Shown in pieces: positions 52,244-56,970 of a stretch of DNA of 64,000 bases. The DNA is from Veillonellaceae bacterium SB90 (GTDB taxonomy: Bacteria; Bacillota; Negativicutes; Selenomonadales; Selenomonadaceae). Numbering within the stretch: position 1 is the stretch's first letter; each line of letters begins with the position of its first letter. A model generated the notes under the pieces. That model was not told the origin of the DNA, did not search any database, and saw only the letters and a list, made by a program, of their open reading frames with translations. Made by a program: the position numbers and the translations under genes. The stretch is taken from contig CABJCJ010000001.1 in the NCBI GenBank assembly GCA_902364065.1, forward strand, positions 62,001 to 126,000, given 5' to 3'.

Positions 52244-52283
52244 GAACTGTTTTGGAATACTGTCGGAAAAGAGGAAGATTTTC

Positions 52284-52961
52284 ATGAAGTTGTTGCTGGA
52301 TTGTGCCGATATGGCAGAAATCAAAGAGGCATACGGGATATTCCCGCTCGATGGTGTGACGACGAATCCGAGTATCCTCGCGCGCACGGGCAGGCCGCCG
52401 TATGAGGTACTCGGCGAGATCCGGGATTTCATCGGTTCGGAAGCAGAGCTGCACGTGCAGGTCGTGTCCGAAGATGCCGCCGGCATGATTAAGGAAGCCG
52501 ACCGCATCGGCGATGAACTCGGTTCCTCGACGTACGTCAAGATTCCAGTGACGTCCGAGGGGCTGCGCGCGATGAAGAAGCTCCACAAGGACGGCGTGCG
52601 CATCACGGGCACGGCCGTCTACACGGCGATGCAGGCCTTTCTCGCGGCGAAGGCCGGTGCTTCCTATGTGGCGCCGTATGTCAACCGCATCGATAATCTG
52701 GGCTCCGATGGCATCGTGACCGCCCGGAATATCCAGACCATCCTCACGCAGAACGACTGCCATGCCGAGATCCTGGCGGCCAGTTTCAAGAATGCCCAGC
52801 AGGTGCTCGCACTCTGCACCTGCGGCATCGGCGCGGCTACGCTCGCGCCCTCCGTGCTCAAAAGCCTCGTGCAGCTCGATGCCGTCACGATGGCAGTCAA
52901 GACCTTCCGCACGGATTTTGAGACGCTCTGCGGCCAGGGCAGGGATATGAGCAATATCTGA
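52284..52961 (+). CDS. Fructose-6-phosphate aldolase / transaldolase-family enzyme
   Basis: A 225-residue TIM-barrel enzyme of the short transaldolase family (FSA/TalC). MKLLLDCADMAEIKEAY and GVTTNPSIL mark the N-terminus and the Schiff-base lysine is Lys86 in STYVKIPV. Short members are either transaldolase or fructose-6-phosphate aldolase; sequence alone does not settle which. AGAGGAAG precedes the ATG. A Gfo/Idh gene follows. Confidence 0.85.
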   Translation: MKLLLDCADMAEIKEAYGIFPLDGVTTNPSILARTGRPPYEVLGEIRDFIGSEAELHVQVVSEDAAGMIKEADRIGDELGSSTYVKIPVTSEGLRAMKKLHKDGVRITGTAVYTAMQAFLAAKAGASYVAPYVNRIDNLGSDGIVTARNIQTILTQNDCHAEILAASFKNAQQVLALCTCGIGAATLAPSVLKSLVQLDAVTMAVKTFRTDFETLCGQGRDMSNI

Positions 52962-53020
52962 TTTTGCCAGATATGCAAAAATACGTTGTGTCCGTACAGG
53001 ACGGGACAGGGGGAATCATC

Positions 53021-53998
53021 ATGGCAGTACAGTATCGCTGGGCCACGCTTGGCTGCGGCGTCATCGGGCATCAGCTGGCCGAGGCCATGCAGAAGCTTGG
53101 CGGCAATCTCTACAGCGTGGGAAACCGGACGTATGAGAAGGGCCTGGCCTTTGCGGCAGAATACGGCATCCCAAAAGTCTATCGCACGCCGGAGGAAATC
53201 TTTGCCGACGACGATGTCGATATCGTCTACATCTCGACGCCGCACAACACGCATATCAAATACCTGCGCCAGGCTCTGGCCGCCGGCAAGCATGTGCTGT
53301 GCGAAAAATCCATCACGCTCAATGCGGCGGAGCTCGCGGAGGCCGTGCAGCTGGCGAGAGAACACCATGTGGTGCTGGCGGAAGCGCAGACCATCTACCA
53401 TATGCCCATCTATCGCGTGCTCAAGGAACGCATGGAAAAGGGCGAGTTCGGCCCCCTGCGCCTGCTGCAGATGAATTTCGGCAGCTACAAGGAATACAAC
53501 ATGAAGAACCGTTTCTTCAACCGCAGTCTGGCGGGCGGCGCTATGCTGGATATCGGCGTCTACGCACTGTCGTTCGTGCGCTGGTTCATGAGCTCGTGTC
53601 CGCATGAGATCCTCTCCCAGGTCAAGTATGCGCCGACGGGCGTCGATGAACAGGCGAGCATCCTCTTGAAGAATGAGCAGGAGGAGATGGCGACGGTTAT
53701 CCTGTCCCTGCACGCCAAGCAGCCAAAGCGCGGCACAATCTCCTTTGACAAGGCCTATATCGAGCTTTACGAGTATCCGCGCGGCGACAAGGCCGTCATC
53801 ACCTGGACGGAGGACGGCCGTAAGGAAGAAGTGACAGCGCGTGATACGGCCGATGCCCTGACTTATGAAGTGCGAGATATGGAGCAGGCCGTAAGCGGGG
53901 CTGAGAATACCATGCACCTTGATTATACGGTCGATGTCATGGATATCATGACGAAGATTCGTCAGGACTGGGGCATGAAGTATCCCGAAGAAAAATAA
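53021..53998 (+). CDS. Gfo/Idh/MocA-family oxidoreductase
   Basis: A 325-residue NAD(P)-dependent oxidoreductase probably acting on a sugar, inositol or dihydrodiol. The Rossmann motif GCGVIGHQLAEAM is at the start, and the catalytic lysine lies in CEKSITLN, where the usual EKP has become EKS. The C-terminal substrate domain has GGAMLDIGVYAL. CAGGGGGAA precedes ATG 53021. It ends at a terminator facing the ribokinase gene. Confidence 0.87.
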   Translation: MAVQYRWATLGCGVIGHQLAEAMQKLGGNLYSVGNRTYEKGLAFAAEYGIPKVYRTPEEIFADDDVDIVYISTPHNTHIKYLRQALAAGKHVLCEKSITLNAAELAEAVQLAREHHVVLAEAQTIYHMPIYRVLKERMEKGEFGPLRLLQMNFGSYKEYNMKNRFFNRSLAGGAMLDIGVYALSFVRWFMSSCPHEILSQVKYAPTGVDEQASILLKNEQEEMATVILSLHAKQPKRGTISFDKAYIELYEYPRGDKAVITWTEDGRKEEVTARDTADALTYEVRDMEQAVSGAENTMHLDYTVDVMDIMTKIRQDWGMKYPEEK

Positions 53999-54053: not shown

Positions 54054-54968
54054 TCAGGAATGAGAAAATTTTTGACGGACTTCTTCATAATCGGGGATGG
54101 AGGATTGCGCACCGGGACGCGTTACGGCAATGGAGGCTGCTTTGGCGCCAAAATCGATGGCCGGTGCGAAATCCCTGCCATCAAACTGACTGATGAACGA
54201 AGCGAGGAAACAGTCTCCGGCGGCCGTCGTATCGACCGCTTTTACCGGATAAGCCGGGAATTCCCGCATGCCGCTCTCCTGAAGGAGAAGCGTGCCTTGC
54301 CCCCCAAGGGTCACCATGACATTCCGGACGCCCAGCGCATGGAGCTTCTGTGCCGCCCGTATGATTTCCTCCCGGCTGCCCGTGGGCATGCCAGTCAGAA
54401 CAGACAGTTCGGTTTCATTGGGCTTGGCGATATCGACGAGCGGAAAGAAATCGGCCGGTATGTCCCGCATGGCTGGCGCAGGGTCCAGGATGAAGAGCTT
54501 TCCCTTCTGACGGCAGAGCTTTGCGGCCTGCTGGACAATGGGGAAGGGAATCTCCAGCTGCATGACGACGGCATCGGCCTGCTCAAAGAGATCGATGTGG
54601 TCGAGCAGCAGGGATTCATCGAGATCGTGATTGGCACCGGCAATCACCGTGATGTAATTCTGTCCCTGCCCGTCAATCTCGATGAAGGCTTTGCCGGTTT
54701 CCCGGTCAGACAGGCGGATGCCGCTCGTGTTCACGCCGGCTGTTTTGAGGTTTTGCACGAGCATCCTGCCGAACGGATCATCGCCGACAGCGCCGATCAT
54801 GGACGTCTTTACCTTCATTCGGGCCAGTGCGTAGGCCTGATTGGCACCTTTGCCGCCAGGGACCATTTTCATGCTTTGTCCCATGACGGTTTCGCCAGCC
54901 GCCGGACGGCGGCTGGTATAGACGTCAAAATCCATGTTGAGACTGCCGATGACCAGTACATTATTCAT
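54054..54968 (-). CDS. rbsK: Ribokinase
   Basis: A PfkB-family kinase, 304 residues, phosphorylating ribose or a similar sugar. Motif 1 is GGKGANQAYALARM and motif 2 is DTTAAGDCF with the catalytic Asp; NMDFDV and NYITVIAGAN also fit ribokinase. AAGGAGG lies 8 bases before the ATG. The start overlaps the end of the regulator-kinase fusion gene by 8 bases, so the two are co-translated. No ribose transporter gene is in the window. Confidence 0.9.
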   Translation of the reverse strand: MNNVLVIGSLNMDFDVYTSRRPAAGETVMGQSMKMVPGGKGANQAYALARMKVKTSMIGAVGDDPFGRMLVQNLKTAGVNTSGIRLSDRETGKAFIEIDGQGQNYITVIAGANHDLDESLLLDHIDLFEQADAVVMQLEIPFPIVQQAAKLCRQKGKLFILDPAPAMRDIPADFFPLVDIAKPNETELSVLTGMPTGSREEIIRAAQKLHALGVRNVMVTLGGQGTLLLQESGMREFPAYPVKAVDTTAAGDCFLASFISQFDGRDFAPAIDFGAKAASIAVTRPGAQSSIPDYEEVRQKFSHS

Positions 54969-56868
54969 GATGGATTCCTCCTTTTTCCATAAAGCGAATC
55001 TGAATCTCTTCGCGGTATGATTCCAGCAGATTCCGCTGGGGCAGTGAGGGCTGAACGCCGGGACCCGCGATGCAGAGACCGGCACTGTAGGTACCGAAGC
55101 CGATGGCCGTTTCTATGGACATGCCCTCGCTGAGACAGACGGCCAGTGCGCTGATGAAGGCATCGGCACCGCCTGTCGTGTCGACTGGCTGGATGTCCAT
55201 GGCAGGGAAGTATTGATGTCCCCCCTGGTGGCAGAACAGGCAGCCATCGGCTCCCAGTGTGATGATGACATGTTTCACACCGGCCTGCAGGAAGTACAGT
55301 GCTTTTTCCTCCAGCGAGGACGGTCCCGGTATTAGTGTCTCGATTTCCCGGCGGCTGGGGATGAGATACGTAATGACGGGCAGCAGCGCGGCGGGAAGAC
55401 TGCGGATATTCGCCGGCTTGACGAGAACCGGGACGCTTTTTCGCTGGCAGATCTGCAGGGTTTCTTCGATAGCTGACATGGGGATTTCCGTGGACAGCAG
55501 GCAATAATGCGCACCGTCAAAAAGCGTTTCCTGTGCCGCGATGTGTTCCCGGGTCAGCAGGCTGTTGGCACCTGGGTAGATGACAATGCTGCTATCGCCT
55601 TTGGCCGTGACGTTGATATAGGCCGTGCCGGTATCGAGTGCGGCATCGAAGGAAACACCCGTACAGCCGACATGATTTTTCTGCAGCTCATTGAAAATCG
55701 TTTGGGAGGCGGCATCCTTTCCCATCATGCCGATGAGACAGGTTTCCGCACCGAGTCTTGCGGCTCCGACTGCCTGATTGGCCCCCTTGCCGCCAGGAGC
55801 CTGCACGACTTTTGACGCCATCAGGTTTTCTCCGGCGGCAGGAAGATGCGGAAGGAAGATATTGCGGTCCATGTTGATGCTGCCGACAACGATGAGCTTC
55901 CTGCCAAGGCCCTTTTGAGGCGGTGCGGCGGTACTGCCGCATGGCAGGAGCTGTATCATTTGTTCATCATCTGCGGGTACATCTTCGGCACGGACGCCCA
56001 GCTGCTCCAGAAGATCGCGGCTTATCTTCGCCGCATAAGCCGTCCAGTCCATCCAGGCCATGGTGATTCTGGCAGCTTCCTTGTCAGCTTTTTCCACGCC
56101 GCTGAGACAGGCCAGCGAGATATCCTGCGGCACGCGCAGCCCGTGGCTGCGCAGCACTTCCCGTACCAGGACGGCCGTTTCAAGGTCGGAGCAGAGGATG
56201 GCTGTACATTCCTTGGGCAGCCAGAACGTCAGGGCGTTTTTGAGGACCTCGGAGGAAAGGACTGTTCCTGCCTGCTGATGCGCTTCCCGGAAGGCCTGCT
56301 CATACCCTTTTTGCCAGAGACTGGTACCGTCCCGGGCAAGGCCGAGAATGTGATGATGCCCGAGTGCGAGCAGGTATTTGGTCATGCGGTAAGCTGCCTG
56401 TTCTTTGATTGATGGCAGGGAAATCATCGTGGGATCTTTTTCGCCTGCCAGCCAGAAAACAGGAAGGCCGGATTCGGCAAGCGGCTTGAGCAGCAGCGGA
56501 GGGTCCTTGGTCAGTGCGAGGACCGCTTCGGCATGCTGCTTTTTTATGTTGTCCGTGAGAGGCGTTTGATAATCCGGATGATAGGGAAACACCATAAGGG
56601 AGTAGCCGGTCTGCATGAAGGCCTTTGTTAGGGCCGACAGGAAACGCATGGTGTCTGTGCTGCTGATATCGGTTGCGACGCCGATGATCCTGCTTTGGCG
56701 TTCATGTTCCTGGAGAATCTTTTTATAGGGCTGATACTGATATTTTTCGATGACGGCCAGGACGTTCTGCCGGGTGATGTCGCGTATGCCGCTGTCTTTG
56801 TGATGGATGACCTTGGATACAGTAGCTGGTGATACGCCGGCTAGTTCAGCAATATCCTTGATGTTCAA
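54961..56868 (-). CDS. LacI-family repressor fused to a PfkB sugar kinase
   Basis: A 635-residue fusion. Residues 1-25 are a LacI helix-turn-helix (IKDIAELAGVSPATVSKVI), about 60-310 a periplasmic-binding-protein-like sensor domain (IIGVATDISSTDTMRF...SDLETAVLVREVL), and about 322-635 a complete PfkB/ribokinase domain. The kinase has KLIVVGSINMDRN, GGKGANQAVGAARLG and a catalytic loop DTTGGADAF (about 563-571), where the usual G-A-G-D is G-G-A-D but the catalytic Asp remains. One open frame covers all domains with no sign of a frameshift. The start is TTG 56868 after AAAGGAG. It is followed by a separate ribokinase gene. The kinase half may act as enzyme or as sugar sensor; this is inference. 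Confidence 0.9.
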   Translation of the reverse strand: MNIKDIAELAGVSPATVSKVIHHKDSGIRDITRQNVLAVIEKYQYQPYKKILQEHERQSRIIGVATDISSTDTMRFLSALTKAFMQTGYSLMVFPYHPDYQTPLTDNIKKQHAEAVLALTKDPPLLLKPLAESGLPVFWLAGEKDPTMISLPSIKEQAAYRMTKYLLALGHHHILGLARDGTSLWQKGYEQAFREAHQQAGTVLSSEVLKNALTFWLPKECTAILCSDLETAVLVREVLRSHGLRVPQDISLACLSGVEKADKEAARITMAWMDWTAYAAKISRDLLEQLGVRAEDVPADDEQMIQLLPCGSTAAPPQKGLGRKLIVVGSINMDRNIFLPHLPAAGENLMASKVVQAPGGKGANQAVGAARLGAETCLIGMMGKDAASQTIFNELQKNHVGCTGVSFDAALDTGTAYINVTAKGDSSIVIYPGANSLLTREHIAAQETLFDGAHYCLLSTEIPMSAIEETLQICQRKSVPVLVKPANIRSLPAALLPVITYLIPSRREIETLIPGPSSLEEKALYFLQAGVKHVIITLGADGCLFCHQGGHQYFPAMDIQPVDTTGGADAFISALAVCLSEGMSIETAIGFGTYSAGLCIAGPGVQPSLPQRNLLESYREEIQIRFMEKGGIHHE

Positions 56869-56895: not shown

Positions 56896-56930
56896 TTTGA
56901 GAAATAGTTTTCGTAAAACTGTTTCTCAAA
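56896..56930. promoter_or_regulatory. Large palindromic operator of the fusion gene
   Basis: Arms TTGAGAAATAGTTTT and AAAACTGTTTCTCAA (one mismatch) around CGT, extendable by a base pair on each side. It lies between the promoter and the start codon, covering about +5 to +39 of the transcript. Each arm holds a GAAA-nn-GTTT-like half, in keeping with LacI-type operators. Autorepression is likely. Confidence 0.75.
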
Positions 56931-56941
56931 GTGATGATATT

Positions 56942-56970
56942 ATTATATAACCGTATTCGTGTTCTGTCAA
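56942..56970 (-). promoter_or_regulatory. Consensus promoter of the fusion-rbsK operon
   Basis: On the minus strand: TTGACA (56965-56970), 17 bases, TATAAT (56942-56947). A perfect match to the sigma-A consensus. Confidence 0.9.

What the first reader, a model, noticed from the sequence alone, without database searches (positions are those of the whole stretch)
54961..56868. LacI-type repressor and PfkB sugar kinase in one polypeptide, next to a second ribokinase
The frame is open from helix-turn-helix through sensor domain to a full PfkB kinase with substrate and catalytic motifs. A single protein could both phosphorylate a sugar and read it, or use the kinase fold as a second ligand pocket. 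The catalytic loop is DTTGGADAF rather than DTTGAGD, so its activity is open. The separate rbsK overlapping its end would then be the working enzyme. LacI and PfkB families are established; the combined mechanism is inference.
Basis: partly seen in the sequence, partly recalled or inferred. Interest (0 to 1): 0.7.

Follow-up and report, generated by a model that had tools for sequence, protein, structure and literature searches.

The report
Repressor that senses ribose with ribokinase
This bacterial gene encodes a DNA-binding repressor fused to a ribose kinase; its original sugar-sensing part looks worn out while the kinase pocket is kept, so the kinase fold probably acts as the switch that senses ribose from nucleosides.

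Summary
The fusion is real: one open frame, 54961-56868 (-), 635 aa, LacI HTH + periplasmic-binding-like module + PfkB kinase. It is not a join error: the architecture recurs in Mitsuokella, Lachnospiraceae, Enterococcus and Treponema, and 55 fused kinases tested form one side of one branch of a ribokinase tree.

(1) The LacI-type ligand pocket is gone: pocket Arg in 0 of 114 fused sensors (46 of 47 separate regulators), pocket Asp in 0 of 114 (46 of 47). (2) The kinase keeps its ribose-site residues and, in 137 of 138, the catalytic Asp, but its anion-hole Gly is Ala/Ser/Cys in 134 of 138, against Gly in 97 of 97 separate ribokinases. (3) A 31-bp palindromic operator is predicted in promoters of 21 of 27 held-out loci; in the window it follows a perfect sigma-70 promoter. 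(4) Common neighbours are ribokinase and nucleoside uptake or hydrolysis genes.

Best reading: an autoregulated repressor of ribose/nucleoside catabolism whose effector site has moved into the kinase fold. No assay was found or run; whether the kinase still turns over is open.

The parts
54961..56868 (-). LacI-PfkB fusion gene, 635 aa
   Evidence: single open frame, Pfam domains
56728..56865 (-). LacI-type helix-turn-helix (residues 2-47), conserved across the family
   Evidence: PF00356; mean pairwise identity 0.635 in 38 fusions
55933..56688 (-). LacI/periplasmic-binding-like sensor module (residues 61-312), ligand pocket residues replaced
55036..55899 (-). ribokinase-like PfkB module (residues 324-611) with the ribose-site residues; Asn187 (E. 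coli RbsK numbering) is Ser here
   Evidence: active-site table; model matches E. coli ribokinase with ribose and ADP
55162..55182 (-). DTTGGAD anion-hole/catalytic loop (residues 563-569); Ala568 replaces the Gly before catalytic Asp569
54054..54968 (-). separate ribokinase rbsK, canonical loop DTTAAGD, overlaps fusion stop by 8 nt (probably one transcription unit)
56898..56928 (.). 31-bp palindromic operator (predicted), motif shared by the family
   Evidence: unique in window, 0 expected
56942..56970 (-). sigma-70-type promoter TTGACA-17-TATAAT, 12 of 12
   Evidence: promoters of 11 of 12 and 12 of 12 upstream of the fusion in L146 and L147
57014..57047 (-). terminator-like hairpin that would close the upstream accC-like gene
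   Evidence: number of terminator-like sites in the region not above shuffles

Best explanation
The protein is an autoregulated repressor of ribose/nucleoside catabolism that binds DNA with a LacI-type HTH and senses its sugar with a ribokinase fold. Shown by computation: one polypeptide; a shared operator motif in its own and catabolic promoters; loss of the LacI-type pocket and hinge residues; retention of the ribose-site residues in the kinase half and, almost always, the catalytic Asp; replacement of the anion-hole Gly in most members; a separate ribokinase-like frame in the genomes checked. Inferred: without ribose the dimer (or two dimers on the double palindrome) sits just past the -10 box and blocks the fusion-rbsK operon; ribose, released from nucleosides by hydrolases, enters the kinase half (probably with ATP), closes its lid and shifts the arrangement of the HTH pairs, releasing DNA. 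The altered anion hole would slow phosphoryl transfer so that the sensor does not quickly consume its signal, and the adjacent RbsK does the bulk catalysis. The old periplasmic-binding module remains as a dimerising spacer.
Against: No binding or kinase data. The catalytic Asp is kept in 137 of 138, so turnover is possible; 4 of 138 fused halves keep Gly (P0087, P0095, L142, L148). In 5 of the 15 genomes (G003, G115, G130, G152, G295) the fused half is the best-scoring ribokinase match, and a separate frame passes the curated cut-off in only 9 of 15 (in G250 with a TGA inside the match). All 55 fused kinases tested lie on one branch, so the loop change and sensor loss may each be one ancient event. 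In the window's protein, Asn187 (recalled nucleotide contact) is Ser. The sensor might bind a different, fast-changing ligand. The 563-aa forms look like one lineage. No operator over 12 bits was found in the promoter regions of 6 of 27 loci (L002, L125, L126, L130, L133, L149), and in L147 it lies upstream of the -35 box. Test loci include relatives of the training loci, and the five training palindromes were picked by eye. The nucleoside-gene association had no formal background control; five of 33 loci hold none of these genes. Pocket-residue roles are recalled from PurR/LacI structures.
Confidence: 0.58

Rival explanations
1. Bifunctional trigger enzyme: the kinase half is a fully working ribokinase and the protein reports flux, for example by binding DNA only when the active site is empty or by sensing its own product.
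For: Catalytic Asp in 137 of 138 usable halves; Lys43 and E143 in 137 of 137, E190 and T223 in 136 each; four fused members keep GAGD; in 5 of 15 genomes the fused half is the best ribokinase match, and the Treponema one reaches the curated cut-off. A ribokinase-family enzyme, FruK, binds the LacI-family regulator Cra (PMC11157272, passages).
Against: Gly254 replaced in 134/138 and catalytic Asp replaced in L130; a separate ribokinase-like frame in 15/15 genomes checked and 24/33 neighbourhoods; the window's fused half scores below the TIGR02152 cut-off while rbsK scores above it.
Confidence: 0.25
2. The LacI-type module still senses, but a different ligand (a nucleobase, nucleoside or sugar phosphate) with a rebuilt pocket; the kinase is a passenger or an independent enzyme.
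For: The module is retained and Pfam still recognises it; replacement residues at PurR position 196 are mostly hydrophobic (I54, V23 of 114).
Against: No conserved new pocket seen: the sensor's mean identity is 0.21-0.27 while the kinase's is 0.525, the only invariant sensor positions in 38 fusions are H171, I174, P247, S251, and a lineage with a 75-residue sensor deletion keeps HTH and kinase. A passenger kinase would not be expected to keep the ribose site throughout.
Confidence: 0.13
3. Sequencing or assembly join of two adjacent genes (rbsR and rbsK).
For: Unfused rbsR-rbsK pairs on one strand with gaps of -31 to 52 nt exist elsewhere (22 pairs).
Against: Full-length homologues in many assemblies at 95% down to 33% identity; fused kinases make one branch, support 100; single frames in 23 of 299 genomes of the family of Clostridium porci.
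Confidence: 0.01

Closest known systems
RbsR, LacI-family ribose repressor (E. coli, Bacillus-type rbsR-rbsK pairs)
   Same: HTH type, likely ribose/nucleoside target genes, palindromic operator, rbsR-rbsK adjacency in many genomes
   Different: Fusion lacks the conserved pocket Arg and Asp and the hinge Leu; operator is a 31-bp double palindrome without a fixed central CG, while 7 of 22 unfused rbsR promoters here show palindromes with a CG centre (by eye); carries a kinase
Ribokinase (RbsK, PfkB family)
   Same: Fold, ribose-site residues, most ATP-site residues, catalytic Asp
   Different: Gly before the catalytic Asp replaced by Ala; Asn187 replaced by Ser in this member; fused to a DNA-binding protein; below the TIGR02152 cut-off
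BzdR (XRE HTH + shikimate-kinase-like effector domain; PMC3602430, abstract and passages)
   Same: Kinase-derived effector domain on a DNA-binding protein; the paper reports no detectable kinase activity for that domain and calls its loss essential to the evolution of BzdR
   Different: Unrelated HTH and kinase folds; here an older sensor module is still present but decayed, and the catalytic base is kept
Cra-FruK complex of E. coli (PMC11157272, passages)
   Same: A LacI-family regulator paired with a ribokinase-family kinase (direct binding, Kd 2.0 nM)
   Different: Two separate proteins; Cra keeps its own effector site; here the pair is one chain
ROK regulators (NagC, Mlc) and NadR (recalled)
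   Same: Regulators that use sugar- or nucleoside-kinase folds
   Different: Different kinase superfamilies and HTH types

Membership tests
LacI-family transcription factor | N-terminal PF00356 HTH | tested here: met
   53.3 bits against cut-off 27
LacI-family transcription factor | C-terminal PBP-like effector domain (PF13377/PF00532) | tested here: met
   46.6 and 26.5 bits, over both cut-offs
LacI-family transcription factor | conserved effector-pocket Arg and Asp | tested here: not met
   Trp and Ser in the window protein; 0/114 fused for both, separate regulators 46/47 for both
LacI-family transcription factor | hinge-helix Leu at PurR position 54 | tested here: not met
   window protein has Glu; L/I/V in 10/114 fused, L/I/M in 46/47 separate
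LacI-family transcription factor | palindromic operator near promoter | tested here: met
   predicted only; no fixed central CG; binding not tested
Ribokinase (TIGR02152) | score over curated cut-off 299.65 | tested here: not met
   258.8 bits for the fused half
Ribokinase / PfkB | PfkB fold and ribose-binding residues | tested here: met
Ribokinase / PfkB | G/A-x-G-D anion-hole motif | tested here: not met
   GGAD in the window; Gly254 replaced in 134/138 usable fused halves
Ribokinase / PfkB | ATP-dependent phosphorylation of ribose | not testable with these tools
   needs an assay
ROK family | ROK domain (PF00480, number recalled) | tested here: not met
   not among Pfam matches at E up to 0.1

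The most novel reading that the evidence does not exclude
A repressor that reads ribose and ATP together with a stalled ribokinase: the closed ribose-ATP complex is the induced state, and slow phosphoryl transfer through the altered anion hole acts as a built-in timer that resets repression, while the decayed LacI module serves only as scaffold. This would be a transfer of the effector site from one complete sensor module to another inside a single protein family, with the old sensor still visible.
Probability: 0.2. Interest if true: 0.82.

Novelty: new variant of a known kind. Interest (0 to 1): 0.63.

Why it matters
If right, it catches a sensor swap in one of the best studied repressor families: the classic sugar pocket worn away and an enzyme fold in charge, in common gut bacteria. 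It would make testable how an enzyme becomes a regulator and how ligand binding in one module controls a different module's grip on DNA. It offers a one-chain counterpart to the Cra-FruK kinase-repressor complex, and a predicted operator (31-bp motif) to look for nucleoside/ribose regulons in Lachnospiraceae and relatives. Where a source names these proteins, it calls them carbohydrate kinases, ribokinases or substrate-binding proteins.

Tried and rejected
Join error: rejected. Recent duplication of rbsK into the fusion: rejected; the window's fused kinase and rbsK lie in different branches. 'GGAD is a private mutation of this gene': rejected. 'Invariant GGKG': my first table required that motif, so I went back to the three fused frames it had dropped (L142, L143, L148); they read GGKC, and two of them keep GAGD. 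They and the distant L006 also lack the pocket Arg and Asp, and adding them (and leaving out the garbled P0008) still gives one branch, 55 fused rows, SH-aLRT 100 (first tree 52 rows, 99). Both trees are quick-method trees with a midpoint root; L006 is a long branch, so its place is unsure.

Rows dropped and biases. Kinase table: 151 gathered, 137 distinct, of which 15 are 563-aa near-copies; P0008 (frame garbled in the loop) and L129 (gap) are not usable at position 254; with the three added, 138 usable: Ala 128, Ser 3, Cys 3, Gly 4. Thinned to under 90% identity, without the three and without P0008: Ala 92, Ser 3, Cys 3, Gly 2, gap 1 of 101; separate ribokinases Gly 97 of 97. The separate sets were gathered by similarity to E. 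coli RbsK and RbsR, the ribokinase one also from the neighbour cluster c0. Sensor table: forms under 600 aa, and frames without the HTH or GG[KR]G anchor, left out. L006 (646 aa, loop GTND) was found as a fusion but lost because my greedy gene picker preferred an overlapping frame; it is in no count except the 55-row tree. Of the 26 of 299 genomes over threshold, three hold no single-frame fusion (L108-L110), leaving 23; of 11 of 350, nine hold none (L116-L124). Operator test: five training loci and L030 (same genome as L148) left out. In the 300 b upstream of the fusion alone, 23 of 33 loci had a site at p below 0.05 and 10 did not (five of the 33 are training loci, each scored without its own site). 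Gene clusters were named from one Pfam-scanned member each; c0 was named by its match to the fusion profile and E. coli RbsK, and c14 was not scanned.

Led nowhere: order of G001, 0 of 63; phrase search for 'ribokinase domain' with LacI, 0 papers. VIA-align and Foldseek rows shown cover the kinase half only, so the LacI half was not tested by fold; monomer pTM 0.59 leaves domain arrangement unsure. Dimer or tetramer geometry was not modelled.

Print status: ten searches listed no paper that I could recognise from title and abstract as describing this fusion; I saw passages of five papers, no whole text. The LacI-family survey PMC4052901 has no word starting with 'fus' in its main text. Papers outside the open-licence library and preprints are not covered.

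Full report
Observation. The window carries one open frame of 635 aa, 54961-56868 on the minus strand, TTG start. Pfam finds a LacI HTH (2-47), a periplasmic-binding-like module (164-299) and a PfkB kinase (324-611). A separate ribokinase, 54054-54968, overlaps its stop by 8 nt; it scores over the curated ribokinase cut-off (327.1 against 299.65 bits) and the fused half does not (258.8).

A real family. A search of the protein collection gave 154 clusters at E up to 1e-3 among the 7997 candidates scored; 120 were listed, most of them full-length with the same domains. The closest is 95% identical and named for an uncultured Mitsuokella. Single-frame fusions occur in 23 of 299 genomes drawn from the family of Clostridium porci (26 over the threshold, three without a single-frame fusion), 2 of 350 drawn from the class of G001 and 2 of 189 of the family of G527, and in Treponema parvum and an Enterococcus raffinosus plasmid (L084; two such records match). 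In a tree of 139 kinase halves and ribokinases all 55 fused rows lie on one side of one branch, SH-aLRT 100: one origin fits, with patchy spread. Unfused rbsR-rbsK pairs on one strand (22 pairs) are a natural source for such a fusion (inference).

The LacI sensor has decayed. I compared 114 distinct fused sensors with 47 separate LacI-type regulators from the fetched loci. The pocket Arg (PurR 196, LacI 197) is present in none of the 114 and in 46 of 47 (Lys in the other); the pocket Asp (PurR 275) in none of 114 and 46 of 47. The hinge Leu position is L/I/V in 10 of 114 and L/I/M in 46 of 47. Thinning to under 90% identity does not change the picture. That these residues contact ligand or operator is recalled from LacI and PurR structures. 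At kinase identity 0.45-0.60 the sensor keeps 0.23 identity in fusions (mean kinase 0.52) against 0.39 in unfused pairs (0.481); at 0.60-0.75, 0.367 (0.649) against 0.616 (0.682; only 10 comparisons). The HTH in the same bands is 0.63 against 0.561 and 0.737 against 0.754. A group of 563-aa forms (23 of the 120 listed) lacks about 75 residues of the sensor with HTH and kinase intact; the six printed share one breakpoint, so I count it as one event.

It has a predicted operator. A palindrome search upstream of the fusion genes showed a long palindrome in several loci. A matrix built from five of them, picked by eye, and run over 27 other loci (484,893 b) gave 35 sites above 12 bits: 29 in promoter regions of the fusion or of gene clusters c0, c2, c4, c7, c9, c13 and c14 (ribokinase, nucleoside hydrolases, Bmp, solute-binding and ECF-type neighbours; 8.6% of the bases), in 21 of 27 loci, and 6 elsewhere; ten block shuffles gave 2-6 in all. 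Some test loci are relatives of training loci. The consensus is about TAAGAAAATATTTTCCTAAAACATTTTCTTA, two AAA-N4-TTT palindromes with centres 13 bp apart. In the window it occurs once (56898-56928; none expected), starting 13 b past the -10 box of a 12-of-12 sigma-70 promoter (56970-56942). That position suits repression of fusion and rbsK together (inference). L146 has nearly the same layout; in L147 the operator lies upstream of the promoter. By eye, 7 of 22 unfused rbsR promoters have palindromes with a CG centre, and one of these, L077, has two AAACGTTT boxes 13 bp apart, so the double layout may be older than the fusion.

Physiology. Among 33 loci, within 7.5 kb, a separate ribokinase occurs in 24, an inosine-uridine-type nucleoside hydrolase in 22, and a Bmp nucleoside-type binding protein in 11; five loci hold none of these. 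In a near relative (L147) the order is fusion, rbsK, DcuC-like permease, nucleoside hydrolase; the window keeps fusion and rbsK only. All 15 fusion genomes searched hold a separate ribokinase-like frame under 360 aa; it passes the curated cut-off in 9 of 15, and in 5 of 15 the fused half is the best match. Four of those five carry Ser or Cys at position 254 (L005, L140, L141, L149), and the fifth is L130, with Asn for the catalytic Asp. So members may differ in how much enzyme they still are.

Mechanism. Most likely the protein represses ribose/nucleoside genes and lets go when ribose fills the kinase pocket. Shown by computation: architecture, single branch, pocket loss in the sensor, pocket retention in the kinase, operator motif, neighbourhood. 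Inferred: ribose as effector, repression as sign, slow or absent catalysis, lid closure as the switch, and one or two dimers on the operator. Rivals: a working bifunctional enzyme (0.25) and a sensor re-tuned to another ligand (0.13).

Comparison. It works like BzdR, where a kinase-derived domain became the effector site (PMC3602430), and resembles in one chain the Cra-FruK pair (PMC11157272). It is a LacI-family protein by HTH and domain match, but fails the pocket and hinge features; it is a ribokinase-fold protein that fails the anion-hole motif and the curated score. I file it as a new variant of a known kind: an enzyme-derived one-component regulator. In ten literature searches I recognised no description of this fusion from titles and abstracts.

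Noticed in passing
L130 (G152:C1:2999747-3001657): Fusion whose loop reads DTTGAAN: the catalytic Asp itself is Asn while the frame is complete, a candidate for a fully non-catalytic sensor.
   Followed up: partly
L077 (Alkalithermobacter paradoxus), upstream of an unfused rbsR-rbsK pair: Operator-like double palindrome of two AAACGTTT boxes with centres 13 bp apart, the same spacing as in the fusion operator, suggesting an older double-site ribose operator.
   Followed up: partly
L112 (G216:C2:108681-109982): A 466-aa frame matching profile positions 192-632, i.e. part of the sensor plus kinase without HTH, about 10 kb from a complete fusion in the same genome.
   Followed up: no
L006 4061-6001 (Oscillospiraceae): Distant LacI-PfkB fusion with loop GTND and Asp in place of the ribose-site Glu.
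   Followed up: partly
L142, L143, L148: Subgroup of fusions with GGKC in place of GGKG in the substrate motif; two of the three keep GAGD.
   Followed up: partly
window 52278-52961 (+) and 53018-53998 (+): Fructose-6-phosphate-aldolase/transaldolase-like gene and a Gfo/Idh/MocA oxidoreductase, convergent with rbsK; the DcuC-like permease that follows rbsK in L146 and L147 is not seen here.
   Followed up: no
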